From Paludisphaera borealis (GTDB taxonomy: Bacteria; Planctomycetota; Planctomycetia; Isosphaerales; Isosphaeraceae): a stretch of 64,000 nucleotides of DNA. The DNA is taken from positions 2,046,001 to 2,110,000 of the forward strand of contig NZ_CP019082.1 of assembly GCF_001956985.1 (NCBI RefSeq), read 5' to 3'. The translations under genes were made by a program, and so were the position numbers. The notes beneath the pieces are model-generated. The model worked only from the letters and a program-made list of their open reading frames with translations. It made no database searches and had not been told where the DNA came from. Shown piece by piece: positions 27,344-42,314 of this stretch. Each line of letters begins with the position of its first letter. Within the stretch, counting starts at the first letter, position 1.

Positions 27344-27473
27344 CCGCATTATGCTGAAGCGTCTGCCGAGAGCCTGCCCCGATACAAACCATCATGACGC
27401 CGTGGGGACACACGGCCTCATGAAAATGGGGATCGCGGTCGGCCAGGTCCGAATGGAAGCCCGCGGCGCGATC

Positions 27474-28158
27474 CAGAGCCCATTTTCATCCGGTCGGGCA
27501 CCCCAAACTGGGGCATGACGATTCGTTCGCGCCGAGACCGCCCCCTCCCGGCTCACCGGCGGATTTGGGTTCGTTTGATGGCCGAAAGGCCTAACTCCTA
27601 GCCCCTAAGCTCTGCTATAGACAAGACTTATGGATGGTTCCGAGATTGGCTTCGATCGCGCGAAAACCAACCAATTTCGGTTCATTCCCGCCCCCTCCAT
27701 CACCTTCCCTCGCTCCGCCCCCCACGGACCAGCCATCGAACCAGCCCCGGTCGATTGGCTCCGTTCGCGCGGCTTTTCCAAGCTTCCTCCGGCTCTTTCA
27801 CCTATGGCGATTAGCTTTGTTCGCGCGATGATCGAAGCCGACGGCGTCGATCGCCGGTTCACGTTCCATGACCACCCGACAGCCGTATTGCGAAAGAGCC
27901 GGACGACTCGCAGAGTCCTCCATCTTGAACATACGATCGACCGACGGGCTTGATCGACGAGTCCTCTCGCCCGACCGGAACCTGGCCGCGACGAAGTGCG
28001 ATTGAAACGATCCGGCGGCAGGAAGGGATTGCGCGGATGGAATAAAGGGGACGGCACAACCCGAGAACTCGTCTGACTCTCGGCTCGATGGTCGCCCTTG
28101 CCGGCGTCGCCCAAACCGCCTAAAGATCCCCGCGGTATAGGAATGACCCCGTTCCTGG
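27474..28158. repeat. Long dispersed element, copy 1 (about 0.7 kb)
   Basis: This region aligns along its length with 38071-38738. Shared landmarks in the same order are CAGAGCCCAT, CCCCAAACTGGGGCATGACG, GGATTTGGGTTCGTTTGA, CACCTATGGCGATTAGC, a GACTCGCAGAGTC hairpin, and a terminal stretch ending GTTCC near 28155. Similarity is highest from 27800 to 27950. No long open frame is shared with intact coding sense, so the element looks non-coding. It fills most of the 1.1-kb gap between a DUF1501 and a DUF1559 gene. Confidence 0.9.
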
Positions 28159-28434
28159 TTTTGCGAAATCTGCGGATGTCTTCCTCCCTGTCGTCCTCGA
28201 CTTTGGAATCCTCCAGCCGTCGCATCAGCCTGAATCACACTAACTCTATCAATAAAGTAGGTATTCGGCTTGACGTGAGCACTCGACCCTGAAGAGAATG
28301 GCGGCCGCATGGAGAGGAATCTCCCGCCTCCCCGCCTAGATACGGCCGACTCGTCGACGAGCGGCATGTCGAGTCGATCGCCGGGTTTCGCCGACCGCAC
28401 CAGCCGGAGGCACCCGGACCTGATGGAGTCTTTC

Positions 28435-29589
28435 ATGCTGATACTGCATCGCGACGGCCGGTCGAGGCCGGCCCACGCACAGCTCCGCCGCCGCCCCGGG
28501 TTCACGCTGATCGAGCTACTGGTCGTGATCGCCATCATCGCGGTTCTGATCGCACTCTTGCTGCCGGCCGTGCAGGCGGCGCGCGAAGCCGCGCGTCGGA
28601 TCCACTGCGTAAACAACCTGAAGCAGCTTGGGCTCGCCCTGCACAATTATCACTCCACGATCGGCTCGTTTCCCATCGCCCAGTCCTGGGCGAAGACCAC
28701 GCCGGGGGCCAATTACGGGGGCAACCCGTGGAGCGCACATTCGCAAGTACTGAGCCACCTGGAGCAGTCTACGGTCTACAACGCGATCAACTTCAGCTTC
28801 GCTCCGGCTCAAGCACTGAACCAGGCGTACTACACCAATTCAACGATTCTCTACTTGCGACTGAACTCGTTCATTTGCCCCTCGGACGGCATCTCTCCCA
28901 CGACCCTGGACGACATAAGAATGGACTTCAACTGCAACTACTCAGGTAGCACGGGGACGACCGTCGAGGCGATTGGGGCCGTGCAACAGACTGTGTCGAT
29001 CCAAGACTCGACGGGCATCTTCGGCTTTGACAACCCGATCAAGCACGGCTCCCGCGTCTACAGCGTGGCGAGCGTGACCGACGGCACGTCCAACACCATC
29101 GCTTACTCCGAGCATCTGGTTGGAGGAGTCGGGCCGAGGGTCACCGACACGCGCCGCGCGAGCTGGGGAAGAGTGCCTGAGGTCGCCGGCGTGGTCTCCC
29201 TCGACCCCACCGCCTTGTACCCGCAAGTCGTCCAGGCCCTCGCGGCTTGCGGCGCGTACGCCCGGGCCAATGCAGCCACGACCGATACGTCCGTGGGATC
29301 CAGTTTCAGCGGTGCCACCTGGATGGCAGGCTACCTGGGCACGACGCTCTTCAACACGATCACGCCGCCCAACAGTCCGCAATACGCCTTCAACTCGTGC
29401 CAGGCGGACCCCCTGTTTACGTGGGGGCTCTCGGGGTTCGTGAACTCGACCAGCAACCATTCAGGGGGCTCCAACTTCACCTTCGCCGATGGCAGTGTTC
29501 GCTTCATCAAGAGTAGCATCGACCTTCGGACCTACTGGGCGCTTGGCACCAGGGCCGGCGGCGAAGTGATCAGTTCCGACGCCTATTGA
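28435..29589 (+). CDS. DUF1559 protein with prepilin-type N-terminus
   Basis: The product has 384 residues from the ATG at 28435, six bases after GGAG. The start [18 protein letters not shown] is a type III (prepilin) signal, with cleavage before Phe, then [20 protein letters not shown]. The DUF1559 (SBP_bac_10) body follows, with [14 protein letters not shown], and the C-terminal [12 protein letters not shown] with the H-x9-DG pattern. The family is a planctomycete hallmark, with dozens of copies per genome, and is thought to form pseudopilin-like surface structures. Specific role unknown. Confidence 0.93.
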
Positions 29590-29718
29590 GAAACAATCCC
29601 AAGCATGGAAGCTGGATGAAACGAAAACTCGCCGACGCCCCGGGTGTCGGCGGGTTCACTCAGCCGTCGCCCCTTACTTCGCACGCGAAACCTGACGAAG
29701 TCACCATAAGGAAGAACG

Positions 29719-31185
29719 ATGCAATTGCCCGCCTGGCCGGCACCACTCCCTGGACGTTCGACTTGCCTCGCCGCTTTCCTGACCTTCCTTGTCGGCGCGG
29801 CCTCTCCGGACGCCGCGCCGGGTGAGGAGGCGAGCCCCCCCAACCTGGTTCTGATCTTCTGCGACGACCTGGGCTACGGCGATCTTGGGAGTTACGGCGC
29901 GCGGGGATACGAGACGCCGAATCTTGACGGGATGGCTCGCGAGGGCGTCCGGTTCACCGATTTCTACGCGACGAGCCCCGTCTGCTCGGCCTCGCGGGCG
30001 TCGCTGCTGACCGGCTGCTACCATGAGCGGGTCGGCATTCAAGGCGCACTGGGGCCTCGCAGCGGGACCGGGCTGAGCCACGCCGAGACCACGCTGGCCG
30101 AGCTGCTCAAGCAACGGGGTTATGCGACCGGGATGGCGGGCAAATGGCACCTGGGCTCGCATCCCTCGCAGCGCCCGACCCGGCACGGGTTCGACGAGTT
30201 CCTCGGCCTCCCGTATTCGGCCGACATGTGGCCCCGACACCCGGAGGCGCCGAAAGCGTACCCACCGCTCCCTCTGATCGACGGCGATCGGAATGCGATC
30301 GCGGACGTCACCCCGGAGGATCAAAGCCGCTTCACGGAGCGCTTCACCGAGAGGGCCGTCTCGTTCATCCGTCGCCATCGCGACCGCCCGTTCTTCTTCT
30401 ACCTCGCGCCGAACATGCCGCACGTACCGCTGTTCGCCGGAGAGAAGTTCCGCGGCAAGACCGAGCGGGGGCTCTATGGAGACGTGATCGCGGAGATCGA
30501 CTGGTCGGTGGGTCAGATCCTGCGGACCCTGAAAGAAACCGGGCTCGACGACCGAACCCTGGTCGTCTTCACGTCCGACAACGGCCCGTGGCTGAGCTAC
30601 GGCGATCACGGGGGCTCGGCCGGCCCGCTCCGCGAGGGGAAAGGGACGTGCTACGAAGGGGGCGTCCGCGAACCGATGATCGCCCGATGGCCAGGACGGA
30701 TTCCGCCGGGGCTGGTCTGCCGCGAGCCAGCCTCGACGATCGACGTTCTCCCCACGATCGCCGCACTCGCCGGCGCCCGACTCCCCGACCGCCCCATCGA
30801 CGGCAAGGACATCCGCCCTCTCCTCTTCGGCGAGCCCGGGGCCCGCAGCCCGCACGACGCGCTTTTCTTCCAGTACCTCAACGGCCAGCTCCAGGCGATG
30901 CGGTCGGGGCGGTGGAAACTTCTCTTCCCGCACACGGCGAGGACCATGATCGGCCAGGCCGCCGGCAAGGGGGGCGTCCCAGGCAAGTACGCGCAGCTCG
31001 CCGTGGGCCTGGAACTCTACGACCTGGAATCCGACATCGGGGAGACGACGAACCTGGCGGAACGGAAGCCCGAGGTCGTTCGCCAGTTGGAGGAGAAGGC
31101 CGAGCGCTTCCGAGAGGAACTCGGCGACAGCCTGCAAAAGCGCACCGGCAAGGCCGTCCGCCCGCCGGACCGCGTATCGGACTAG
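29719..31185 (+). CDS. Sulfatase (arylsulfatase family), exported
   Basis: The product has 488 residues with an N-terminal signal (STCLAAFLTFLVGAASPD). Metal-binding DDLGYGDLGSYG starts at residue 49. The formylglycine motif is CSASR (Cys89 to Arg93); the usual third-position Pro is Ala, a known variant. GKWHLG near 140 and TSDNGPW near 288 are other active-site blocks. It hydrolyses sulfate esters, probably of sulfated polysaccharides, in the periplasm or outside. An anaerobic- or aerobic-type sulfatase-maturing enzyme is needed and is not in the window. Confidence 0.93.
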   Translation: MQLPAWPAPLPGRSTCLAAFLTFLVGAASPDAAPGEEASPPNLVLIFCDDLGYGDLGSYGARGYETPNLDGMAREGVRFTDFYATSPVCSASRASLLTGCYHERVGIQGALGPRSGTGLSHAETTLAELLKQRGYATGMAGKWHLGSHPSQRPTRHGFDEFLGLPYSADMWPRHPEAPKAYPPLPLIDGDRNAIADVTPEDQSRFTERFTERAVSFIRRHRDRPFFFYLAPNMPHVPLFAGEKFRGKTERGLYGDVIAEIDWSVGQILRTLKETGLDDRTLVVFTSDNGPWLSYGDHGGSAGPLREGKGTCYEGGVREPMIARWPGRIPPGLVCREPASTIDVLPTIAALAGARLPDRPIDGKDIRPLLFGEPGARSPHDALFFQYLNGQLQAMRSGRWKLLFPHTARTMIGQAAGKGGVPGKYAQLAVGLELYDLESDIGETTNLAERKPEVVRQLEEKAERFREELGDSLQKRTGKAVRPPDRVSD

Positions 31186-31312
31186 GATGCGGCGATCCCG
31201 TCTCCCGCCCCGAAAGCCCCGAGAAAAAAAACAGGCCAAGTCCCTAGAAGAGCGTGGGTTACGACGTCGCTGGACGAGCGTTTTGCGCACACCGAAGCAT
31301 GCTTGGATCGTA

Positions 31313-31341
31313 TTGACACCCGTCTGAACTTCGCTTAATTT
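31313..31341 (+). promoter_or_regulatory. Sigma70-type promoter upstream of the PEP-CTERM gene
   Basis: TTGACA at 31313-31318 is separated by 17 bp from TAATTT at 31336-31341. The gene's ATG lies 75 bp downstream. The -35 box is perfect and the -10 has four or more matches, unusual in this GC-rich window. Confidence 0.6.
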
Positions 31342-31415
31342 TCAAAGCTCGCACGGGCCGACCTCGGCTTGGACGCCGAGGCCTGAGACGAATGAAGCAC
31401 AGGGAGGGGACCATC

Positions 31416-32252
31416 ATGCTCACGCGATCGATACAAAAAACTCGCGGAATTCGTCTCGGACGGACCTTCGTTTTAGTCGCGCGACAGGCATTGGCCGTCG
31501 GGGTCTGCGCCTTGGCTGCGGGGCAGTCGTGGGCGTCGCCTTACATCGCGACGGATCTCGGCCGCGTTTCTGATATGCAGCAAAAAGGGCAGAGCTTCGA
31601 CAACACGAAGACAGGCGTCTCCTACGCCTTCCCCGTGACGGTGAGACAATTGGCCGGTGCGGAGGGGAACAACCTGCCGACCTATTCGGCGCACATCAGC
31701 CAGCCTCTCACTCCCATCGGGGACGGCACCGCTCATACAAAAACCGTCACGATGCATCCGCTGTTGATCAACAACTCCGGGACGGTCATCGGCACCCTCG
31801 ATACGGTCGTCGATCGCTTCGGCAATTCGGTCTCCACCAATATCGGGTATGCCGTCAGGTCGCCTGACGGCACCTATTCGCCGTTCGTGACGATGGCCAC
31901 CGCGCCCAACGGCGCATACGTCCACCTATTCTTGAGCCAGGCGAATCAGATTCTCGCCCTCGGCCAAAAGACGTGGTTGGTGGACCTGAACAAGGGCACG
32001 ACGACGTCGCTCGATCAACTGGTTCCACAACAGATCTTGCAGAACTATCCGTACAATCAGTACGTCCAGGGCATTGACGATCGGGGCGACATCGTTATTT
32101 ATGCCGACAACCAATATACCGGGTCGGAAGCCTTCATGCTCACGCCGCCGGGTCTGGACCCGCCCGCGGTGCCTGAGCCGTCGACGCTGCTGATCTTCGC
32201 CGCAGCCGGCGTGCTGGTCGTCCGCACCGCCCGCCGTCGAAAGCTCGCCTAG
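31416..32252 (+). CDS. PEP-CTERM-anchored exported protein
   Basis: The product has 278 residues from the ATG at 31416, six bases after GGGAGGGG. A signal peptide ending near GQSWAS is followed by a repetitive beta-rich body. The C-terminus VPEPSTLLIFAAAGVLVV plus a basic RTARRR tail is a PEP-CTERM sorting signal, cut by an exosortase during export. No exosortase is present here. Repeats such as NNSGTVIGTL and DDRGDIVIY resemble the HAF-type extracellular repeat. Substrate or partner unknown. Confidence 0.87.
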   Translation: MLTRSIQKTRGIRLGRTFVLVARQALAVGVCALAAGQSWASPYIATDLGRVSDMQQKGQSFDNTKTGVSYAFPVTVRQLAGAEGNNLPTYSAHISQPLTPIGDGTAHTKTVTMHPLLINNSGTVIGTLDTVVDRFGNSVSTNIGYAVRSPDGTYSPFVTMATAPNGAYVHLFLSQANQILALGQKTWLVDLNKGTTTSLDQLVPQQILQNYPYNQYVQGIDDRGDIVIYADNQYTGSEAFMLTPPGLDPPAVPEPSTLLIFAAAGVLVVRTARRRKLA

Positions 32253-32379
32253 AATTTCATCCGGTCGGGAGCCTCGGAATTTCGAGGGTGCATCGGCGGA
32301 GGGTGGAAGTGGCACGCGAACTTGCGGTTGTCGTCCTGAAAACGACCGGTCCAATGGGACGCCCACCCGACGTCCCGCT

Positions 32380-32414
32380 CTGGACATCCGACCGCGTCAG
32401 TCGCCGACGGGGAT
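32380..32414. pseudogene. Relic of the 3' end of a gene like the one at 41055
   Basis: Thirty-five bases here match 41038-41072 with one mismatch. In the intact minus-strand gene at 41055 the matching bases code the last residues (IPVGD) and stop codon. Upstream sequence does not match, so this is a small relic or recombination scar. A REP-type repeat lies next to both copies. Confidence 0.65.
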
Positions 32415-32419
32415 GGAAA

Positions 32420-32605
32420 AATCAAAGGGGTCAGGAGCCGAAATTCCATAAAGAAGGGATCGACTGAGTCAGTCCCGACCCAGTCAATCTACCTCAATAG
32501 CTCCTGACCCCTTTGATTCCCTACCTCAATAGCTCCTGACCCCTTCGATTCCTTGTGACCCCTTTGATTCCTTGACCCCTTTGATTCCTTGACCCCTTTG
32601 ATTCC
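32420..32605. repeat. REP-like inverted and tandem repeat cluster
   Basis: A 19-bp arm at 32420-32438 (core CAAAGGGGTCAGGAGC) is repeated in perfect inverse at 32500-32518. It is followed by tandem units: two 32-bp units at 32489-32520 and 32521-32552 with one difference, then TGACCCCTTTGATTCC units ending at 32571, 32588 and 32605. The array replaces the 3' end of the DUF1569 gene. Similar cores recur at 33011-33092 and near 41023. Confidence 0.85.
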
Positions 32606-32984
32606 TTAACACCGGGTGCGAGGCGAACGGGCCGTCGTCGGTCGTGAAGCGTTTGATCGCGTCGCGCAGGGCCTCGGCCTGTTCGGTCGGGTCGCAAGAA
32701 TCGGGCGGTACGAGGATCGCCAGCGGCGGGTGCGCATTCTCCGGAAAGCGGCCGGCGCGGAAGAACATCCGGCGCAGGGCGCGCGAGCGGTCGCGTCCTT
32801 CGACGGGCTCGGCATCTCGATCGGCCTCCATCGAGAGCCGGACGCCCACCGCCAGGTGATAAAGGATCTGCCCCAGGGTCCAACGGCCGACGGCCTCATG
32901 ACCGGCCAGAAGTCGGTCGACGTCGGTCATCACGCCGTCGAGGCCGTCGAGGCCGTCGAAGCTGAGCGTCCGTCGCTCGGTCAT
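32526..32984 (-). CDS. DUF1569 protein with 3' end replaced by repeats
   Basis: The frame starts at the ATG at 32984 after GGAGGAG and gives 152 residues. TLSFDGLDGLDGVMTDVDRLL, then GRWTLGQILYHLAVGVRLSM matches the DUF1569 (DinB-like) start. The sequence reaches GPFASHPVL and then turns into RNQRGQGIKGVKESKG, which is the translated tandem repeat. The family's C-terminal metal-binding helices are lost. It is probably a truncated, possibly inactive gene. Confidence 0.72.
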   Translation of the reverse strand: MTERRTLSFDGLDGLDGVMTDVDRLLAGHEAVGRWTLGQILYHLAVGVRLSMEADRDAEPVEGRDRSRALRRMFFRAGRFPENAHPPLAILVPPDSCDPTEQAEALRDAIKRFTTDDGPFASHPVLRNQRGQGIKGVKESKGSQGIEGVRSY

Positions 32985-33010
32985 CTCGTCTCCTCCACAT
33001 GAAGAGGGTA

Positions 33011-33092
33011 TCAACTGGGTCAGTCCCGACCCAGTCAAGCTACCTCAATCGCTCCCGGGCCCCTTGATTCTGTTTTAACCCCTTTGATTCTC
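33011..33092. repeat. Second REP-like cluster flanking the DUF1569 gene
   Basis: CTGGGTC (33015-33021) pairs with GACCCAG (33028-33034) and is followed by ACCTCAATCGCTCC and two degenerate copies of CCCCTTTGATTC. This is the same motif order as in 32461-32520. The DUF1569 remnant thus lies between two clusters. Confidence 0.75.
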
Positions 33093-33175
33093 CTCATGCC
33101 ATTCAAGAATGACCCTTTTCCGGCTCCCCCCCCGATTGCGGTGGGCTTCTGGTACGCGATGAGAGTGGACTCCTG

Positions 33176-35041
33176 TTACGTGGCTTGTTCCCCATATGTA
33201 TCAGAGTTTGTATTGAAGAGTTGAGGATCGAGCCGATTCAACAGCCGCCGGATCTTGGGGATTTGTTCGAGCGCGGCCGCCTCTCCGATCGCGGCGAGCT
33301 CCTTCGCCCTCATGAACTCCGCGGAGTCGACGCCCGTCACGTCCGGTTCGATGACCACGTCCGCCGGCTGAACACCGAAGGCGTTCAGGCTGTGGTTCTG
33401 AACCAACAGGCTGCGCAAGATCGTCGGCCCGATGCCCGGCTTGTTCCTGGCCAGAATGGCTTGGCCAGGTTTGATGTCGCAGAAACGAGTCTCCAGCTTC
33501 GCCGTCACGCTGATGGCGATGACGAAGTTGCAGCCCATCGAAACCAGCACATCCGCCGGGATATTGTTGACCAGCCCGCCGTCGATCAGCGCCTGGCCGT
33601 CGCGGACGATCGGCACGGAGAGGACGGGCAGGTTGATGCTCTCGAGGATCGCATGGACGGCGTCGCCGCGTTCGCGAACGACCGAGTTGCCGCTCACCAG
33701 GTCGACCGTGACGGAGAGACAGGGGACGGCAAGTTGCTCGAGTCTCCAGTCGTGCAGGTACTTGCGAAGCATCGGGTCGAATTTCCCGCGACGATACTTG
33801 TGAATCAGGTACCAGTAGTTGCCTTGCGGCAAGCGGCGGAAAATCCATGAGGGGCGAAGGTCCGTGGCGAACTGATTTGCGTTGTAATCGGGATCCAGGC
33901 CGGCGGCGTACATGATGCCGGTCATGGCTCCGGCGCTGGTGCCGGCGATCATGTCGACGACGATGCCGCTGCGCTCCAGGGCCTTGAGCACGCCGAGATG
34001 CGACATGCCTCGGGCGGCCCCCCCGCCGAGGGCTACGCCCACACGCACGCCCCGGAGGTCGTGTACCAGCCGCTCCAGCCCGTTGGCCAGCGACCGACCC
34101 ATCGGCGGTTTTGGCGGCGTTTCCTTGATTTTGAAATCGCGGGAGACAAGCTCGGGAAGGTTCGGAACTGCGGAGACCACGGAACTGTCGCCCCTGATCA
34201 GCCAGGCGACACTGATCTTGTCGCGCCAGCCCCGGGCAGACACTTCCATCGCCTGCAGGCGGCGGATTGCGCTGTCGGCCTCATCTGCCGGGATGAAAAA
34301 GACGGCGCGGTCGACGAGATTCATGAGCTGCGCCGCCCGTTCCGGCGTCAGGAAGGTGTGGACGTCGAAGATGATTCGATTGGCGTCCTGCCAACGAGCG
34401 ACCTGCTCCCGGATTTCCTCCGAGGTCAAATCTCGGCCGTCCTCTCGGAGTGCCCGAAACCGCACATTCGGCGAATCCATCCGCTGGTCCGAATCGCTCA
34501 ACACCGCGAGTTGCTCACCGACGTCGCTCAGTCGCCGGATGAGCCGTTCTGCCGTCTGACGCGTGGTGGGCGAATCGTGAATCAGCGCCAGCATCATCAC
34601 CGAGCGCTTGGGGGCGTCGCCCAAGAAGAGCTTTCGCAAGCTCCCCGCGTAGGTCTTCAGCCACAGACGGCGCAGGTCCGGCCTGGCGAGCGTCAGTTCC
34701 ATCGCCTCTTCGTAGTCCAGCCTGAGGACCGTCGTGGGCTCCAGCGCGACGACGCGGATCGGCACGGATTCGCCGAGCGCGCCGACCATCAGCCCGAATT
34801 GCTCGCCGCGCTCGATCATGCGGAACAGCGACTCAGTACCGTTTGAGCTGACTCGAACCGCCTTGAGCCTCCCTCGCAGGACGAAGCCCACCGTGGTGAG
34901 CACGACGTCCGCCTCGTGGACGACGCTGCCGGCTGCATACTGCGCGACCCGGCCGAGCCGAGCGACTTCGTCGAGGGTCTCATCGGATGCCCCCTTGAAG
35001 TACTCGTGCACTTTCAGGAGCGGAATGATCTCATCGTTCAT
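33176..35041 (-). CDS. cNMP-binding / patatin-like phospholipase (NTE family)
   Basis: The product has 621 residues from the ATG at 35041. Residues about 8-110 form a cyclic-nucleotide-binding-type barrel (VLRGRLKAVRVSSNGTESLFR). The middle part (about 145-310) resembles the degenerate Rossmann-like region of bacterial NTE proteins. The patatin domain has GVALGGGAARGMSHLGVL (oxyanion loop), GTSAGAM with nucleophile Ser369, and DGGLVNN with Asp487, so the Ser-Asp dyad is intact. It probably hydrolyses membrane lipids or lysolipids under regulation by its sensor domain. Its start lies inside the end of the DUF4105 gene (11-bp overlap). Confidence 0.9.
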   Translation of the reverse strand: MNDEIIPLLKVHEYFKGASDETLDEVARLGRVAQYAAGSVVHEADVVLTTVGFVLRGRLKAVRVSSNGTESLFRMIERGEQFGLMVGALGESVPIRVVALEPTTVLRLDYEEAMELTLARPDLRRLWLKTYAGSLRKLFLGDAPKRSVMMLALIHDSPTTRQTAERLIRRLSDVGEQLAVLSDSDQRMDSPNVRFRALREDGRDLTSEEIREQVARWQDANRIIFDVHTFLTPERAAQLMNLVDRAVFFIPADEADSAIRRLQAMEVSARGWRDKISVAWLIRGDSSVVSAVPNLPELVSRDFKIKETPPKPPMGRSLANGLERLVHDLRGVRVGVALGGGAARGMSHLGVLKALERSGIVVDMIAGTSAGAMTGIMYAAGLDPDYNANQFATDLRPSWIFRRLPQGNYWYLIHKYRRGKFDPMLRKYLHDWRLEQLAVPCLSVTVDLVSGNSVVRERGDAVHAILESINLPVLSVPIVRDGQALIDGGLVNNIPADVLVSMGCNFVIAISVTAKLETRFCDIKPGQAILARNKPGIGPTILRSLLVQNHSLNAFGVQPADVVIEPDVTGVDSAEFMRAKELAAIGEAAALEQIPKIRRLLNRLDPQLFNTNSDTYGEQAT

Positions 35042-36023
35042 GACGCCGCCTTTCGAGTTCGCGACGGATGTGATCGCCGAAGCCCGACGCCGGGGCTGTG
35101 TCCGCAATGTCGTTCAGGCAAGCGAGTCGGCGGAGTTCCTTGAAGGGTAGAGTCCGGTCCAATCGACCGTCGTTGTAGAGAGCCCGATCCAAACGGGCGT
35201 TCGCAATGACGCGCCAGTCCCAGCGGACCCGTGTGCTGGGAAGCTTGTAAAAAGAAGTTGTACAATTCGTGAACAGGACGTGATACCAGCGAGGACTCTC
35301 GTATAATTGATTGATCGTATTCACGTAATCGAGAAACACTTCTGTTAGTTCCTCGACGGTGGAATTGAGGTGGTAGAGGTACGCCAATTGACCTTGGCTG
35401 TATTTCGTGCGTCGTAGAATGGCGTCGCGTTCGTCCGCGGCGACGAAGATCAGTTCCTGCTGTCGATACAGGCTGCGAACGACCGAGTATTTTTGCCCCT
35501 TCGGGAGACGCGCCTCGATCGACATGCAGATGCGGCCATCGGGTCCGAAGTCGAAGATGAGGGCAGGGTGGCCCAAGAACCCATTTCCCCAGTCGAAGAA
35601 AATGACGTCCACGCCCTTGATGCTCGACAGATGATACACGCGGGCTTCGTACCGCGGCGTGAAATCGTCCAGCGGATGATCTTCAAGGTTGCGGACGTTC
35701 TCGATCGTCACCGCATCGTCGGCTCTCACAGCCCGCGGCAGTACGGCGGCGTTTGGGTCCCACTCGCGATCGTTGGTCGGTTCCAGTCGGAACCACCAAA
35801 GGAGGAATAGGAACTCCGCCCCGAGCAAGGCAACGATCGGCTGCCAGAGCGGCCTCCAGGCCGCGAACACCGCAATCACGCCAACGGCCCAAGCCAGCGC
35901 GACCCAACGGGCCCACCTGGCTCCGCCGCACATGTCGTAGTAAATCGCGCCGACCATCCAAACCGCAACCAGGGCGCTCGCCAGCAGCGATGCTCCCGTG
36001 ATGAATTCCAGTATGAGGCCCAT
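35031..36023 (-). CDS. DUF4105 (Lnb-type) membrane protein
   Basis: The product has 330 residues from the ATG at 36023. Three hydrophobic helices open the protein (LILEFITGASLLASALVAVW, WVALAWAVGVIAVFAAW and IVALLGAEFLFLLWWF). The outer domain then shows GNGFLGHPALIFDFGPDG and TNCTTSFYK, the DUF4105 / Lnb N-terminal pattern with a conserved Cys. This fold relates to papain-like or NlpC-like enzymes that act on peptidoglycan or lipids; activity here is inferred. It shares a transcript with the patatin gene downstream. Confidence 0.78.
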   Translation of the reverse strand: MGLILEFITGASLLASALVAVWMVGAIYYDMCGGARWARWVALAWAVGVIAVFAAWRPLWQPIVALLGAEFLFLLWWFRLEPTNDREWDPNAAVLPRAVRADDAVTIENVRNLEDHPLDDFTPRYEARVYHLSSIKGVDVIFFDWGNGFLGHPALIFDFGPDGRICMSIEARLPKGQKYSVVRSLYRQQELIFVAADERDAILRRTKYSQGQLAYLYHLNSTVEELTEVFLDYVNTINQLYESPRWYHVLFTNCTTSFYKLPSTRVRWDWRVIANARLDRALYNDGRLDRTLPFKELRRLACLNDIADTAPASGFGDHIRRELERRRHER

Positions 36024-36354
36024 GAACGTTTTCTCTTCTGAGCGGCGCAGCCCATTGCGAGAGCGGGTTGATGCACCTGCTAGAGCCGGTTCAAGACCGG
36101 CGTTCACTCAGTTTACCAGAACAGGGAAAAGAAACAGAAAAGAGAACAGAAAAGGAAGAGAAACCGGGCCAGAAAGGCGACCGGTTGGTGTAATCCTACC
36201 CAGAAGAAGCACGCGGACCTGAGCGGAGGCCGGCAGGTACGATGTTGCGTGTCGATCGCCGAAGAGAAAACGTGGCCTGCCCTGCCAATAGTGTTCGGCA
36301 CGAGATTTGAGATGTCGTTAGAAGTTAGTGTGGTTTGAGTTTGGGCTGGGCACG
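36024..36354. other. Intergenic region with hairpin and purine-rich tract
   Basis: Upstream of the DUF4105 gene. A perfect 6-bp hairpin (GCCGGT / ACCGGC) lies at 36085-36101. A tract of almost only A and G runs from 36119 to about 36167. No gene is seen. The promoter of the DUF4105/patatin pair must lie here but was not pinned down. Confidence 0.5.
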
Positions 36355-36441
36355 TAGGGGCGTCCCTTGTGGGTGCCCGATCGGCGTCGGCGACTGCGGC
36401 GATCCCCGGCAATTCGGGCGCCCACAAGAGACGCCCCTACA
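36355..36441. repeat. Palindromic MITE-like hairpin, family M
   Basis: Left arm 36355-36381 and right arm 36415-36441 are reverse complements over 27 bp with two mismatches. The ends read GTAGGGGCGTC and GACGCCCCTAC. The 33-bp loop has no coding sense. It is a single copy in this window. Confidence 0.85.
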
Positions 36442-36618
36442 GGCATGCGGTCTTCCATCCCCCCCGGCTAAGCGCAACTCAAAGGTGAACCGCTCTAACC
36501 GATTTGTAGCCGACCCTGTGAGGCCAGTCTCATGCGGATGTGGAGTGAAGCGTCTACCAGATCGCCGGTGACCACGTCGTCGACTTCGACGTCATGCTGG
36601 TGTTCGACGGGTCGGGCG

Positions 36619-37875
36619 TCACGGCTTCGGCGACTTATCACCGGGCTTCTGCTTCTCCTGCTTCTCGTGTTTCTCCGCCCACGCCTTCCCTTCGGGCGAG
36701 GCGACGAACTCCGCGAATTCTCCGACTTCCGACAGGTCGCCGATTTCTTCGTCGAACACCGACTCCAGGGTTTCGAGTATTTCCGCAACCTCCCCGAACC
36801 GCTTCTGCTCCATGGCCGCGCCAAGCAGGCCGTCGTAAGCCGGCTTCAGGTCCGGCTCCTCGACGATCGCCGCGCGGTACGCCGCCAGGGCGTCGTCGGG
36901 CCGCTTCAGGAGCGTCAGAATGTTCCCTCGCAGCACCTTGAGGTACGCGTCCTCGCCCAGCGCCTTCTCCAGCTTCCCGATGTACTCCAACGACTTCTCC
37001 GGCTGCTTCATCAAGAGGCAGCCGTCTACCATCTGGAAGTCGCTGGCCGGGTCGCCAGGAAAGCGTCGGGCGAAGTCCTGGATCGCCTCCAGATATTTCG
37101 CGTCGTCGCCGGTCTTCTGGGCCGCGGCGCACCGGAGCACCTGGAAGATTTTCTCGTTTTTCAGCTCCTCGGGGAGGGCGTCGTAGATCGTCAGCGCCTC
37201 TTGCGCCCGTCCCTCACGATTGGCGGCGGACATACGCTTCACATCGCCGATGTGCTTGAAAAGATCGTGATCCTTGCTCAACAGGCGGTCGACGATGCCG
37301 CGGTTGATCTGGGCGATGCCCGCCAGGTACATACGACGGGCCCCCTGCGAGGCCAGCTCACCGGTCGACAGCGAGTAGTAGTCCACAGCCCGGATTCGGC
37401 CGTCCGGCCTGCGGTCGAGCATGAACAGGAGGTACGAGACGATCCCCTCCGGCTGGATCAATCGGAACAGAAACGCCGGCCGGCCCCGCCACTCAAGCGC
37501 CTTGGTGACGCGCACACTGGCACCAGCCTGGACGGTCGGTCGGAGTTCGACGAGCAGGGCGGGGCCGTCGCGCTCCTGGGTCTTCCGCGCCCCGTTGAGG
37601 AACCCCTCCCGGAACGGGGGCGGTGCCTTGACGCCCGAGGAGGCGGCCTCCAGCATGGCTTCGGTGTCCATCGCCTGCTCGACCGCCTTGGAGTCGAGCC
37701 GCACGATCGCGTCGGCCATCCTCTTGCCGAACTCCAGCGCCTCCGCCTTGGATATCGGCCGGCTCTCAGCAACGGTCTCCGGCGGCTTGTCCTGCGCATA
37801 CCCCGTCGCGCCGGAGCCCACGATCCCGATCGCCGCCGCGATGCCCCACGCCGCCGCGCGCCCTGTCCTGCTCAT
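36619..37875 (-). CDS. Exported TPR-type protein
   Basis: The product has 418 residues from the ATG at 37875, with GAGGAGG upstream. A signal peptide ending near TGYAQ is followed by a non-repeat alpha-beta domain to about residue 190, then TPR-like helix pairs (ANREGRAQEALTIYDALP, KTGDDAKYLEAIQDFARRFPG, KRPDDALAAYRAAIVEEPD, MEQKRFGEVAEILETLE). The tail is Lys/Glu-rich. It probably acts in the periplasm as a scaffold. Function unknown; the 3' end abuts a small gene fragment. Confidence 0.75.
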   Translation of the reverse strand: MSRTGRAAAWGIAAAIGIVGSGATGYAQDKPPETVAESRPISKAEALEFGKRMADAIVRLDSKAVEQAMDTEAMLEAASSGVKAPPPFREGFLNGARKTQERDGPALLVELRPTVQAGASVRVTKALEWRGRPAFLFRLIQPEGIVSYLLFMLDRRPDGRIRAVDYYSLSTGELASQGARRMYLAGIAQINRGIVDRLLSKDHDLFKHIGDVKRMSAANREGRAQEALTIYDALPEELKNEKIFQVLRCAAAQKTGDDAKYLEAIQDFARRFPGDPASDFQMVDGCLLMKQPEKSLEYIGKLEKALGEDAYLKVLRGNILTLLKRPDDALAAYRAAIVEEPDLKPAYDGLLGAAMEQKRFGEVAEILETLESVFDEEIGDLSEVGEFAEFVASPEGKAWAEKHEKQEKQKPGDKSPKP

Positions 37876-37967
37876 CGCCCTCGCCTCCTCAGCCACCGGC
37901 CATCCCCATCTCTCGGCTTGCTCTGAAAATAGCTCGTGGGACCGACTGCGTGACGATCGAGGAGCGG

Positions 37968-38047
37968 AATACCAGCCCGACGCGCCAGCGAGGGGATCGC
38001 CTCGGCGATTCGATAACACTCCCTCGCTGGCGCGTCGGGCTGGTATT
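37968..38047. repeat. Dispersed palindromic repeat, family P, copy B
   Basis: Arms 37968-37994 and 38021-38047 are perfect reverse complements over 27 bp around a 26-nt loop. The core is CGACGCGCCAGCGAGGG, a variant of the copy A core. It lies just upstream of long element copy 2. Confidence 0.9.
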
Positions 38048-38070
38048 GGGAGGCCGCTCTCGACACGGCC

Positions 38071-38738
38071 CAGAGCCCATTTCCATGAGGTCGGTCACCC
38101 CAAACTGGGGCATGACGATTCGTTCGCGCCGAAACCACCCCCTCCCGGCTCACCGGCGGATTTGGGTTCGTTTGACGGCAGAAAGGCCGAACTCCCAGCC
38201 CCTAAGCTCTGCAATAGAAAAGATTTATGGCTGGCTCTAAGATTGGCTTTGATCGCGCGAAAACCACCCGATCTCGGTTCGTTCCCGCCCCCAACCTCGA
38301 CTTCCCTCGCTCCGCCTCCCACGGACCAGCCCCGGACGATTGGCTCTGTTCGCGCGCTTTTCCAAGCTTCCTCCGGCTCTTTCACCTATGGCGATTAGCT
38401 TTGTTCGCGCGATGATCGAAGCCGTCGGCGTCAATCGTCGGTTCACCTTCCATGACCACCCGACAGCCGTATTGCGAAAGATTAGGACGACTCGCAGAGT
38501 CCTCCATCTTGAACATACGACCGATCGACGGGCTTGATCGATGATTCCTCTCGCCCGCACCGAAATTGGACGCGACGAAGTGCGATCGAAACGATTCCGC
38601 GACAGGAAAGGATTGCACGGATAACGACGAGGGCGAAGCGAGTCGGGATCTAAACTGTTCCTCGGCTGAATGACTGCCTTCGACGACTGTGCCCAAAACG
38701 CCTAGACTTCCCTGTGGTTTAGGAATGCCCCCGTTCCT
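38071..38738. repeat. Long dispersed element, copy 2 (about 0.7 kb)
   Basis: Aligns with 27474-28158 in the same orientation, with shared landmarks listed there; the GACTCGCAGAGTC hairpin here is near 38490. Differences include small insertions and deletions and many substitutions. Long open frames across it are not conserved in both copies. It fills part of the 1.4-kb gap before the degenerate patatin gene. Confidence 0.9.
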
Positions 38739-39266
38739 TCCGGAGTGGGCGTCCCATGGGTGAGAGTCTTGATGGGGCGAGGGTCGAACGCAAGGAAAAA
38801 CTGAACTGACAACGTGATTCCCGACACCGGGTTTTCCCCTCGTGAGGACCTTCCCGCCGACAGTCGCCACGAGACTCCCCACCGGGTGTGGCTACGCGCT
38901 GGCCGCCTGTCGCCGTTTGCTTATGGGAATGGCTCTCGATATCATAAGGTTTGGAGCGGGTGCACGTGACCCCGGTATGGCTTCGCCCACCGCCGACCCT
39001 TGACCGCCGGTGCCCTCGTTGTCGGGCTGTGCGTTGCGGCCCGGTGAAGTTCTGGCCAGGGACACCCGGAACACCGCCTGTCATCTCGTGGCTTTGCGAT
39101 GGGGCAGTGGTCCTGGCGCTAATCCTGGTCCCGAATTTCGTGGGCCACTTGTTGATCGTCTGTTAGTCACGACCGCTTGAGGTATCTGTCGAACCAGCGC
39201 TGAAGCTGACACGACCCGCAGTGTAGGTTCCAGGGGGTTTGTAACCAGCTGATTCGGGTCGGGCAG
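38739..39266. other. Intergenic region without a recognised gene
   Basis: A TTG-initiated frame at 38951-39166 would give 71 residues with CPRC and a hydrophobic end, but the start is weak and no ribosome site is seen. Nothing else is supported. Base composition is mixed, less GC-rich than the core genes. Confidence 0.5.
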
Positions 39267-40772
39267 GTGTTCGGCTGCGGAGCGGATCAGCCTCAGCAGC
39301 CTGAGGGGAATGAAGTGGTACAGCCAGGGGCAACTATCGGGCGGAAGCGTGTTCCACTCTTCGTCTGGGCCGTCGCGCTCGCCCTGGGTCTGAATGCACC
39401 GGCCCGGGCCGCGGCCTTCTGGAGGCCGAACGACGACGTCGTTATTCCTGAAGGGGCCGAGCCGAAGCCCTTTCGCAAGGTGCTCATTCTTTCAGGAGGC
39501 GAGCTTCGCTTCTCAGCGGGCCTTGCGATGATGGCCACACTTCATCAGAGGGGATGGGTTCCCGATGTGACCATCTACACCTGCGGATTCTCCAAGATCC
39601 CGGGCGCGTATTTAAACTCACTCACCCAAGTCCAGCCCGGTCAACCCGATCCGACGAAATGGTATGAGGCCGCTCTGTCGGACGAGTACTTCCGAATCAT
39701 GCAAAGAGTCAAAGTCAACAAGGATTTCTATTCTAGAGTCGTGGATAAAGACGGAAACACCGCTTCGAGCCTGCTTTACGAGCAAATGACTTCCCGGATC
39801 GCGGGAATGCAATTGAAGAAAGGGCTCAACAAGGCAAGCAAGCTCCCCTTTCTTTCTTCCCTACTCAGCACTAACCCAAGCCCTTTTAAGATGACCCCGG
39901 TGGCCGTCTATCCCGCCCTGTATCGAGAGAACAAAGACACCCTCCTTGATGTCCCTTTCGATCTCAGTCCCGCCGGAATGAATATTCCCTTTTCAGCAAA
40001 CAAGATGCGCGCCATTTTTGTGGCGACAAAGATCCTCTACCCACGTGAGTTGCAAGGTAAGCCTCGACCCGAGAATTCTCAGCCCCTCTATCAGGAGGTG
40101 ATTTTCACCGATCGGCTGACGGCGGACGAAATCGCACGAGTGAAATACGGAAAGTCGCCGATCGCAAAGATGTTCCCGAAGGCCCCGATCCATACAGATG
40201 TAGAAGTCCGTAGTGACTACCGGGTCTGGGATGTGGCCCGAGCCGCATTGGCAGATATGTACCTTACCGCGCCCATGTGGCTAGAAGACCCCACGGGCCG
40301 TCATCCCAAAGAACTTTTTATCACAGGTGCGCTGAACATTTCGCCCATCGAATTAGCGCTTTCGCTGGGCGACGAGGTGATGGCCATTCGAATGAAGGAG
40401 TTGCGAGCGTCAAACCCCGCCGAGAAAATAGAATCGTACGTTTATGAAAATACATTCGGCTTTACCAACGACGAGAGAAGACTAGAGATCAAAAACCGTT
40501 TCGGCGACAAGGTGATCTGGATCGATCTGGAAGGAATCCAGGAAATGGAGAAAAGAAACGGTTTTTCCCCACTGCGCGTCGGAGACGGGCCGAAAATGCA
40601 TTTAGAGGATAACATCCCCAGTGATCCCGCCGAGTTCAAGAGGCGGAGCAAAGCCCAGTGGGAATGGGGTGTGGAGCAGATCAATCGGGTTGATCTTCGA
40701 AGGAAAGGCGGCCAAAAGAAAGACACAGAAGTCTCATCCTCGGCGCCGGGCAGCCGCGACTCTTGCAGATGA
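39267..40772 (+). CDS. Patatin-fold protein with degenerate catalytic motifs
   Basis: The product has up to 501 residues from a GTG at 39267 (start uncertain; an inner GTG near 39312 is possible). A signal peptide (VPLFVWAVALALGLNAPARA) is present. The patatin-type order of motifs is kept, but KVLILSGGELRFSAG (residues 71-85) replaces the glycine-rich oxyanion loop. The nucleophile elbow reads CGFSKIPGA (106-114) rather than GxSxG. The dyad aspartate region reads ITGALN (about 352-357) rather than DGG. The gene looks visibly AT-richer than its neighbours, suggesting transfer. It is probably exported and not a working lipase. Confidence 0.7.
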   Translation: MFGCGADQPQQPEGNEVVQPGATIGRKRVPLFVWAVALALGLNAPARAAAFWRPNDDVVIPEGAEPKPFRKVLILSGGELRFSAGLAMMATLHQRGWVPDVTIYTCGFSKIPGAYLNSLTQVQPGQPDPTKWYEAALSDEYFRIMQRVKVNKDFYSRVVDKDGNTASSLLYEQMTSRIAGMQLKKGLNKASKLPFLSSLLSTNPSPFKMTPVAVYPALYRENKDTLLDVPFDLSPAGMNIPFSANKMRAIFVATKILYPRELQGKPRPENSQPLYQEVIFTDRLTADEIARVKYGKSPIAKMFPKAPIHTDVEVRSDYRVWDVARAALADMYLTAPMWLEDPTGRHPKELFITGALNISPIELALSLGDEVMAIRMKELRASNPAEKIESYVYENTFGFTNDERRLEIKNRFGDKVIWIDLEGIQEMEKRNGFSPLRVGDGPKMHLEDNIPSDPAEFKRRSKAQWEWGVEQINRVDLRRKGGQKKDTEVSSSAPGSRDSCR

Positions 40773-41054
40773 CGCTTCCCTGGTTGTGCCGATTGGCCGG
40801 TTCGCCTTCATCGCTGCAACGCCCTTTCCACGTAGTCGAGGTAATCGCCGCCCACGCCCCGAAACTCGCCGCCCACGCCCCGAAACTCGCGGTCCGGGTG
40901 CTGGACTTCCCCACTTCTGGTGGAGTCCGTAACACTCTCTAGGAGATCTGGCAAACACGAATCGCCCGGTTTCGCGGGCCCTGGCGGAATTCAAGAATGA
41001 CCACTCTCATCATTCTGACCCCTTTCGCCGTTCCACGCTGGACGTCCGACCGCG
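40773..41054. other. Intergenic region with 21-bp tandem duplication and gene remnant
   Basis: Two identical 21-bp units lie at 40846-40866 and 40867-40887. Read on the minus strand, a short frame gives EFRGVGGEFRGVGGDYLDYV and ends in VERALQR, which looks like the C-terminal remnant of an unrecognised gene. A GACCCCTTT REP-like core lies near 41023. Confidence 0.5.
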
Positions 41055-42314
41055 TCAGTCGCCGACGGGGATCGTCAGCAGCGGGCCGCCGGTGTGGGTC
41101 TCGGATTCTTCGATCGAGACCAGGATTTCGAGGATCGCCATGATCGCCCGGCTGTTGACGTCGTTGCTCGGGATGTAGAACCAATAGCCGCGATAGAAGA
41201 CGGCCATCTCGGCGTCGCGCGGGCGGTGCTTCTGGGAGCGGACGAAGAAGTTGCCGGCCGTGATCTGGGTCCAGTTGTACGGTCGGCCGTCGGGGCCGGG
41301 CGTGCTGGGGGCGACGTTTTCGGCGACGTGCTCCTCGGGCACGCACACGCCCTTCGACAGGAAAACCATCATCTGGAGGATCGACCGCAGGTTGAGGTAG
41401 ATCGTCTCCCCGGTCTCGATCGCGTCCGGCGTCTCATCGAGCGCGTTCTGCGAGAACTCCGACTTCAAGCGATACCGTGAGAGGCCGGGACGAAGATGGA
41501 AGATCCGGCAGAGTTCGTGCATGTCAGGCGAGTCGACGTATGGGCGGTGGACCCGGAGGACGAGCGACTTCTCGCGCTTCAGAAGGGCCATCCGCCCCTC
41601 GCCACGCTGCCGGAAGACGTAGCCTTCCTTGGCCGCGTTGAGCAAGTCGTCCCCGCCCAGGCCCTTCTCGGCGATCGGATCGGAGGAGGCGTCGGCGTCC
41701 TCCTCGTAACCGACCTGAATCTCGGTCGCCGACCGCTCGCGGAGGCTCGCCATCAGCCGTACGCCACGGAGGAACTCGGCGTTGTAGTCGGGCGCCTTGG
41801 GAGTCATCGCGGTCGCCTGCGGCGCATTGCCGACGTCGTTGACGTCGTTGAGCGTCAGCAGCATCATCTGCTCAAGGTTGGCGCCGGCGTTGACGACGCT
41901 GAACAGCTCGGCCGACAACGGCGTCAACAGCGCCTTGGCGACTTCCTTCCCTTCGCGAGGCCGGTAGCTGAGCGTGGGGCTGTCGCGGGCCCCAAGCTCG
42001 CCGAACCCGAGGTTGGCGTTGCCCGGATACTGGTTGCCGAACCCTCCCAGGAAATGCGCGTTGCCACTGATCTCGAACTGGCTGGTGATGCTCGGCAAAT
42101 CGATGAAGACGGGCGAATCTGCGTACCGCAAGCGGACGATGTTCATCAAGAGCTGTTCGTCGTTCGTGACCCGGACCGACTCGTTGTACTTCATCCGCGT
42201 CGTCCGCAGGGCCTTGGGCCCGAGACACCCGGGCCCGACCATGATAGCGGCAAGGACGGCCCACGCCCCGAGAATCAGCCGCCGTCGAGGCTTGTTTCGA
42301 CTTGGGACCGCCAT
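41055..42314 (-). CDS. Planctomycete lipoprotein of unknown function
   Basis: The product has 419 residues. The N-terminus is a signal peptide with lipobox MVGPGC, giving a lipid-modified Cys. The mature part starts KALRTTRMKYNESVRVTNDEQLLMNIVRLRYADSP, a pattern I have seen in planctomycete and related outer-membrane-type proteins, but I cannot name the family. The ending (GGPLLTIPVGD) recurs as a relic at 32380. It is divergent from the amidohydrolase gene and stands alone. Confidence 0.75.
   Translation of the reverse strand: MAVPSRNKPRRRLILGAWAVLAAIMVGPGCLGPKALRTTRMKYNESVRVTNDEQLLMNIVRLRYADSPVFIDLPSITSQFEISGNAHFLGGFGNQYPGNANLGFGELGARDSPTLSYRPREGKEVAKALLTPLSAELFSVVNAGANLEQMMLLTLNDVNDVGNAPQATAMTPKAPDYNAEFLRGVRLMASLRERSATEIQVGYEEDADASSDPIAEKGLGGDDLLNAAKEGYVFRQRGEGRMALLKREKSLVLRVHRPYVDSPDMHELCRIFHLRPGLSRYRLKSEFSQNALDETPDAIETGETIYLNLRSILQMMVFLSKGVCVPEEHVAENVAPSTPGPDGRPYNWTQITAGNFFVRSQKHRPRDAEMAVFYRGYWFYIPSNDVNSRAIMAILEILVSIEESETHTGGPLLTIPVGD

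What the first reader, a model, noticed from the sequence alone, without database searches (positions are those of the whole stretch)
39267..40772. Patatin-fold secreted protein without a working active site
The motif order is patatin-like, but the oxyanion loop, GxSxG elbow and DGG aspartate are all changed. The gene looks AT-richer than neighbours and has an uncertain start, suggesting transfer and a non-enzymatic role.
Basis: partly seen in the sequence, partly recalled or inferred. Interest (0 to 1): 0.55.

Follow-up and report, generated by a model that had tools for sequence, protein, structure and literature searches.

The report
Secreted patatin relative, altered active site
A rare, apparently exported protein of planctomycete bacteria descends from the patatin lipid-cutting enzymes but has swapped their catalytic serine for a lone cysteine and lost the partner aspartate, while the old active-site region stays strongly conserved, so it probably does something new with lipids rather than being a decayed gene.

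Summary
The gene is under purifying selection, AT-richer than other window ORFs (GC 54% against 66%) and has a likely signal peptide. It matches no Pfam model; a distant relative on a Moraxella plasmid (24% identity, E 1e-10), itself a patatin by Pfam, links it to that superfamily. In six alignments the catalytic Ser lies over Cys90 and the DGG Asp over Ile336 or Thr337, so the Ser-Asp dyad is gone. But "no working active site" is not shown: the former active-site blocks are among the best-conserved parts (88 of 97 positions invariant; 0 of 430 shifts as good) and Cys90 is the only cysteine shared by the trio. The gene occurs in 3 of 45 genomes of the order, at three different sites; transfer is plausible, unproven. 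AlphaFold failed (three similar sequences), so the fold rests on sequence alone. Best reading: an exported, divergent patatin-superfamily protein with a cysteine-centred site; cysteine acyl chemistry and non-catalytic lipid binding are about equally likely. New variant of a known kind, moderate interest.

The parts
39315..40772 (+). Coding sequence of the secreted patatin relative, 485 aa plus stop, GTG start
   Evidence: Orthologues L001:8049-9452 and L002:8049-9452 start with ATG here; dN/dS about 0.19-0.25
39132..39314 (+). Leader shared with both orthologues (about 68-73% identity over 180 nt), with the ribosome-site-like GAGGGG; function unknown
   Evidence: Pairwise identity; no Rfam match
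39315..39416 (+). Likely Sec signal peptide, residues 1-34 (basic stretch, hydrophobic core, AxA-like end before Phe-Trp)
   Evidence: Alignment, hydropathy; no dedicated predictor
39492..39512 (+). Glycine (oxyanion) loop SGGELRF, residues 60-66
   Evidence: Alignments
39582..39584 (+). Cys90, in the column of the patatin nucleophile Ser
   Evidence: Six of six alignments; the only Cys shared by the three planctomycete proteins
40191..40193 (+). His293, the only His invariant in the four aligned relatives; candidate partner of Cys90 (inference)
40254..40256 (+). Asp314 of the invariant DMY; other candidate acid/base (inference)
40320..40325 (+). Ile336-Thr337, at the place of the catalytic Asp of DGG
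   Evidence: Ile336 in three, Thr337 in three of six alignments
40713..40769 (+). C-terminal extension of 19 residues absent from both orthologues, which stop earlier
27350..41050 (.). Stretch of about 13.7 kb around the gene that is absent at this site in three of five congeners
   Evidence: G028, G030, G031

Best explanation
An exported, divergent member of the patatin superfamily. Shown: it is homologous to patatins through a Moraxella intermediate, the Ser-Asp dyad is absent, Cys90 occupies the nucleophile position, and the old active-site blocks are under strong constraint. Inferred: after export the lone Cys at the elbow forms or holds an acyl thioester with an envelope lipid, acyltransferase-like or as a slow hydrolase, with another residue (His293 is the best candidate) in place of the lost Asp. 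I put patatin homology at about 0.93, absence of the classical dyad at 0.95 and cysteine-based chemistry at about 0.45; the confidence given is for the last.
For: Bridge to Pfam Patatin through WP_100271231.1. Cys in the Ser column in six of six alignments, in both branches. 88 of 97 positions in the three active-site blocks invariant, 0 of 430 circular shifts as good. Only one Cys shared by the exported trio. One His invariant in all four. Purifying selection. The Moraxella gene overlaps methyltransferase and SDR genes and lies near phosphatidate cytidylyltransferase and PAP2 phosphatase genes. A patatin-domain protein (PNPLA1) is a known transacylase (passages of PMC9332298).
Against: No catalysis shown; no acid at the Asp position. 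The trio has five extra residues right after Cys-Gly, and Glu63 in place of the third loop glycine, which may deform the site. The first block alone (54-71) is matched by 18 of 430 shifts, and residues 415-435, outside the classical site, are equally conserved. One Cys and one His invariant among four sequences, three of them alike, is thin evidence. Both fold predictions failed.
Confidence: 0.45

Rival explanations
1. Pseudoenzyme: a patatin fold kept as an exported lipid- or protein-binding module with no catalysis.
For: Both catalytic residues are changed, the glycine loop too, and the elbow carries a five-residue insert; conservation of the pocket would also fit binding.
Against: A Cys at exactly the nucleophile position, kept across 24% identity and as the only shared Cys of an exported protein, is not what free decay would give.
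Confidence: 0.42
2. The nucleophile moved to Ser93 (GFS), so it is still a serine enzyme.
For: CGFSK holds a G-x-S; Ser93 is invariant in the trio.
Against: Moraxella has no Ser there, all six alignments place Cys90 in the Ser column, and no acid replaces the Asp of DGG.
Confidence: 0.08
3. Not a patatin relative at all; the motif order is coincidence.
For: No direct Pfam or PDB sequence hit; direct scores against ordinary patatins are at chance; the fold prediction failed.
Against: The Moraxella bridge covers 84% of the query with the motif blocks in order. hhalign of the trio against 19 patatin domains scored 26.1, 20 column shuffles at most 20.4, the reversed control 14.9.
Confidence: 0.05

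Closest known systems
Moraxella osloensis WP_100271231.1, 'patatin-like phospholipase family protein' (plasmid pNP7-2)
   Same: 24% identity over 84% of the query; Cys in the Ser column, no acid in the Asp column; shared KPF, SGGxLRF, RAxxxDMY, GxLNxxPIELA and TFGF stretches
   Different: No signal peptide, no insert after Cys-Gly, keeps the third loop glycine, lies in a tight gene cluster
Ordinary patatin-like phospholipases (PF01734; Pat17, PlpD)
   Same: Order of glycine loop, elbow and DGG block
   Different: They use a Ser-Asp dyad (passages of PMC4172759, PMC11116518); here Cys and Ile/Thr. All 22 ordinary patatins aligned keep Ser and Asp
PNPLA1 (patatin-domain transacylase) and PHA synthase PhaC (Cys in a lipase-like box; recalled, not tested), as functional analogies
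   Same: PNPLA1 shows that a patatin domain can transfer acyl groups (passages of PMC9332298); PhaC, recalled, uses Cys where lipases use Ser
   Different: PNPLA1 keeps Ser-Asp; PhaC is not a patatin. No homology to either was tested

Membership tests
Patatin (PF01734) as an enzyme family | Match to the family profile | tested here: not met
   0 Pfam families at E <= 10 for the window protein and at E <= 1 for both orthologues; the Moraxella relative passes the cut-off (37.7 against 27.7 bits)
Patatin (PF01734) as an enzyme family | Nucleophile Ser in GxSxG | tested here: not met
   Cys90 in the Ser column in six of six alignments
Patatin (PF01734) as an enzyme family | Catalytic Asp of DGG/DGA | tested here: not met
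   Ile336 or Thr337 in six of six alignments; Met in Moraxella
Patatin (PF01734) as an enzyme family | Glycine-rich oxyanion loop GGGxRG | tested here: inconclusive
   SGGELRF: two Gly and the Arg kept, third Gly to Glu, last Gly to Phe
Patatin superfamily (common descent) | Sequence homology to patatins, directly or through an intermediate | tested here: met
   Window-Moraxella E 1e-10, Moraxella-Pfam Patatin 37.7 bits, shuffle controls
Patatin superfamily (common descent) | Patatin fold in a structure | tested here: inconclusive
   pLDDT 38 and 35; Foldseek with no hit at E <= 0.001, though 13 of the 50 listed hits are CapE, CapV, ExoU, VipD or cPLA2-type structures, which I know as patatin-like

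The most novel reading that the evidence does not exclude
A natural patatin-fold enzyme clade whose Ser-Asp dyad has been rebuilt around a cysteine (Cys90, perhaps with His293), found in planctomycetes and a gammaproteobacterium, exported in the planctomycetes, and doing acyl-thioester transfer on envelope lipids.
Probability: 0.3. Interest if true: 0.62.

Novelty: new variant of a known kind. Interest (0 to 1): 0.42.

Why it matters
If the cysteine is active, this would be a natural Ser-to-Cys swap with loss of the catalytic acid in the patatin fold, a test case of how a lipid hydrolase changes its chemistry. If not, it is a well-defined exported pseudo-patatin under selection. Either way it gives a seed (three orthologues and a Moraxella bridge) for a family that the Pfam patatin model does not detect.

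Tried and rejected
AlphaFold on A1 and on the trimmed A3 failed, because only three similar sequences could be used. Foldseek on the better of the two models gave nothing significant. NCBIfam and PADLOC: 0 families. PDB by sequence: 0 hits for the window protein; for the Moraxella protein only weak ones (7 at E <= 1, best 0.19; VipD 0.2, PlpD 0.42). Viral contigs: no relative with the window protein, the Moraxella protein or alignment A2. Phages: none with the window protein at E <= 1; with the Moraxella protein six matches at E 0.9 or worse, taken for noise. Wider planctomycete searches: at E <= 0.001 only the own genome of 392; profiles A1 (E <= 1, 20 of 392) and A2 (E <= 0.1, 11 of 392) added only short weak matches, best E 0.0168 and 0.0066, taken for noise. 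A recent transfer was not established. A known RNA in the leader: no Rfam hit.

Literature: no paper of the library held 'patatin' with 'catalytic cysteine' and 'nucleophile', with 'serine' and 'replaced by cysteine', or with 'GXCXG'. I saw listings only, apart from passages of three papers. This does not prove that nothing is in print.

Full report
Observation. The ORF at 39267-40772 (+) is present. Two orthologues, in Planctomycetales MAGs L001 and L002 (matching genomes G018 and G020), are 78% and 77% identical over the protein. In both an ATG stands where the window has GTG 39315, with a GAGGGG-type ribosome site just upstream, so the protein most likely starts there: 485 aa in the window, 468 aa in the orthologues. 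The window copy runs 19 residues beyond the orthologues' stop. Coding is supported by dN 0.10-0.13 against dS 0.51-0.54 in the three pairs.

Composition. GC is 0.544 and GC3 0.633, against a mean GC of 0.661 (sd 0.034) and a mean GC3 of 0.789 for 35 ORFs picked mechanically in the window, itself included; its GC3 is the lowest, though some of these ORFs are probably wrong frames. The orthologues are also poorer in GC than their flanks (0.599 against 0.659; 0.547 against 0.695).

What it is. There is no Pfam, NCBIfam, PADLOC or PDB sequence match. tblastn against 72,556 plasmid records gave one hit, a 373-aa protein of Moraxella osloensis pNP7-2 (E 1e-10, 23.6% identity, 84% of the query); orthologue L001 gave the same single hit at E 2e-11. 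That protein matches Pfam Patatin over nearly the whole profile (37.7 bits, cut-off 27.7). The bridge is needed: the window protein scores 182 against it (500 shuffles: mean 35.8, sd 5.5, maximum 76) but is at chance against three ordinary patatins (z 0.8-2.1), whereas the Moraxella protein has z 11.5, 11.8 and 4.5 against the same three. Profile comparison of the trio with 19 patatin domains was weak (score 26.1; 20 shuffles at most 20.4).

Active site. In Pat17 the dyad is Ser77-Asp215, with Gly37 and Gly38 in the oxyanion hole (passages of PMC4172759). In six MAFFT alignments (three methods, 8 or 26 sequences) Cys90 always takes the Ser column; Ile336 (three times) or Thr337 (three times) takes the Asp column; Moraxella has Cys51 and Met252 there. 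All 22 ordinary patatins in the larger set keep Ser and Asp. The glycine loop reads SGGELRF in the trio and SGGGLRF in Moraxella. The trio has five extra residues after Cys-Gly.

Is the site still used? Within the trio, 88 of 97 positions in the glycine-loop, elbow and DGG blocks are invariant against 72% of the mature protein, and none of 430 circular shifts does as well; singly, the blocks are matched by 18, 3 and 1 of 430 shifts. I chose the blocks by homology to patatin. Another stretch, residues 415-435, is equally conserved and unexplained. Cys90 is the only Cys in both orthologues; the window copy has one more, in its private tail. Across the four sequences one His (293) is invariant. 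This is why I do not accept 'no working active site', but nothing here shows catalysis.

Export. All three planctomycete proteins begin with a stretch holding basic residues, a hydrophobic core and an AxA-like end before Phe-Trp (hydropathy); no dedicated predictor was available. Moraxella lacks this.

Distribution and mobility. The gene is in 3 of 45 genomes of the order, own included, and in 0 of 5 congeners; in the phylum sample it is in 1 of 392, the own genome (Moraxella query likewise). In three of five congeners (G028, G030, G031) the homologue of the window gene ending near 27.3 kb lies 0.7-1.1 kb from the homologue of 41058-42314, so the 13.7 kb between them in the window are absent there; G029 and G032 do not show this arrangement. 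In G018 the gene lies between a Y-family polymerase gene (Pfam IMS) and a small gene that are direct neighbours in 6 of the 8 genomes examined (G000, G020, G028, G029, G030, G031); G032 has another arrangement. In G020 the held flanks match nothing else in the window. The DNA shared by L001 and L002 is the gene plus about 175 nt of leader; the window and L001 share about 470 nt of leader. Against recent transfer: dS of the gene (0.51-0.54) is only somewhat below that of GuaA and the polymerase for the same pairs (0.62-0.77), the two genomes of one genus are closest, and in both G000 and G018 the gene lies within about 6 kb of the same polymerase gene.

Mechanism. The Moraxella gene overlaps a Methyltransf_20 gene and an SDR gene and lies near phosphatidate cytidylyltransferase and PAP2 genes, so a role in phospholipid metabolism is likely for that branch. 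A patatin-domain protein can transfer acyl groups (PNPLA1, passages of PMC9332298). I therefore put cysteine-based acyl chemistry on envelope lipids slightly ahead of non-catalytic lipid binding (0.45 against 0.42). The step from Cys at the elbow to acyl chemistry, the role of His293 and the substrate are inference.

Limits. Both structure predictions failed (pLDDT 37.8 and 35.2). Foldseek on the first gave no hit at E <= 0.001 among 133 matches; 13 of the 50 listed are proteins I know as patatin-like, which is suggestive at most. Genomes outside Planctomycetota were searched only by one scan of genome contigs with patterns suited to close relatives (2 loci from 25 candidate stretches), so how common the Moraxella-like branch is remains unknown.

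Noticed in passing
window 33179-35107 (-): An ordinary patatin (PF01734, 90.3 bits, with a cyclic-nucleotide-binding domain, GTSAG and DGG intact) lies about 4 kb upstream of the finding.
   Followed up: partly
window 35034-36107 (-): Next to it, a protein with an Lnb N-terminal periplasmic domain (PF13387, 81.5 bits).
   Followed up: no
window 27350-41050: About 13.7 kb absent at this site in three of five congeners, so probably a strain-specific or relocated segment; no tRNA gene in the window.
   Followed up: partly
L026 5042-7871: Moraxella plasmid cluster of a Methyltransf_20 gene, the patatin relative and an SDR gene, each overlapping the next by 4 bases, beside phosphatidate cytidylyltransferase and PAP2 genes. 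It recalls the E. coli ynb genes (from memory, not tested).
   Followed up: partly
window 40557-40619 (residues 415-435): A stretch (GFSPLRVGDGPKMHLEDNIP) fully conserved in the trio except at one position, outside the classical patatin motifs.
   Followed up: no
window 40848-40889: Two tandem copies of a 21-base unit shortly after the stop codon, seen by eye.
   Followed up: no
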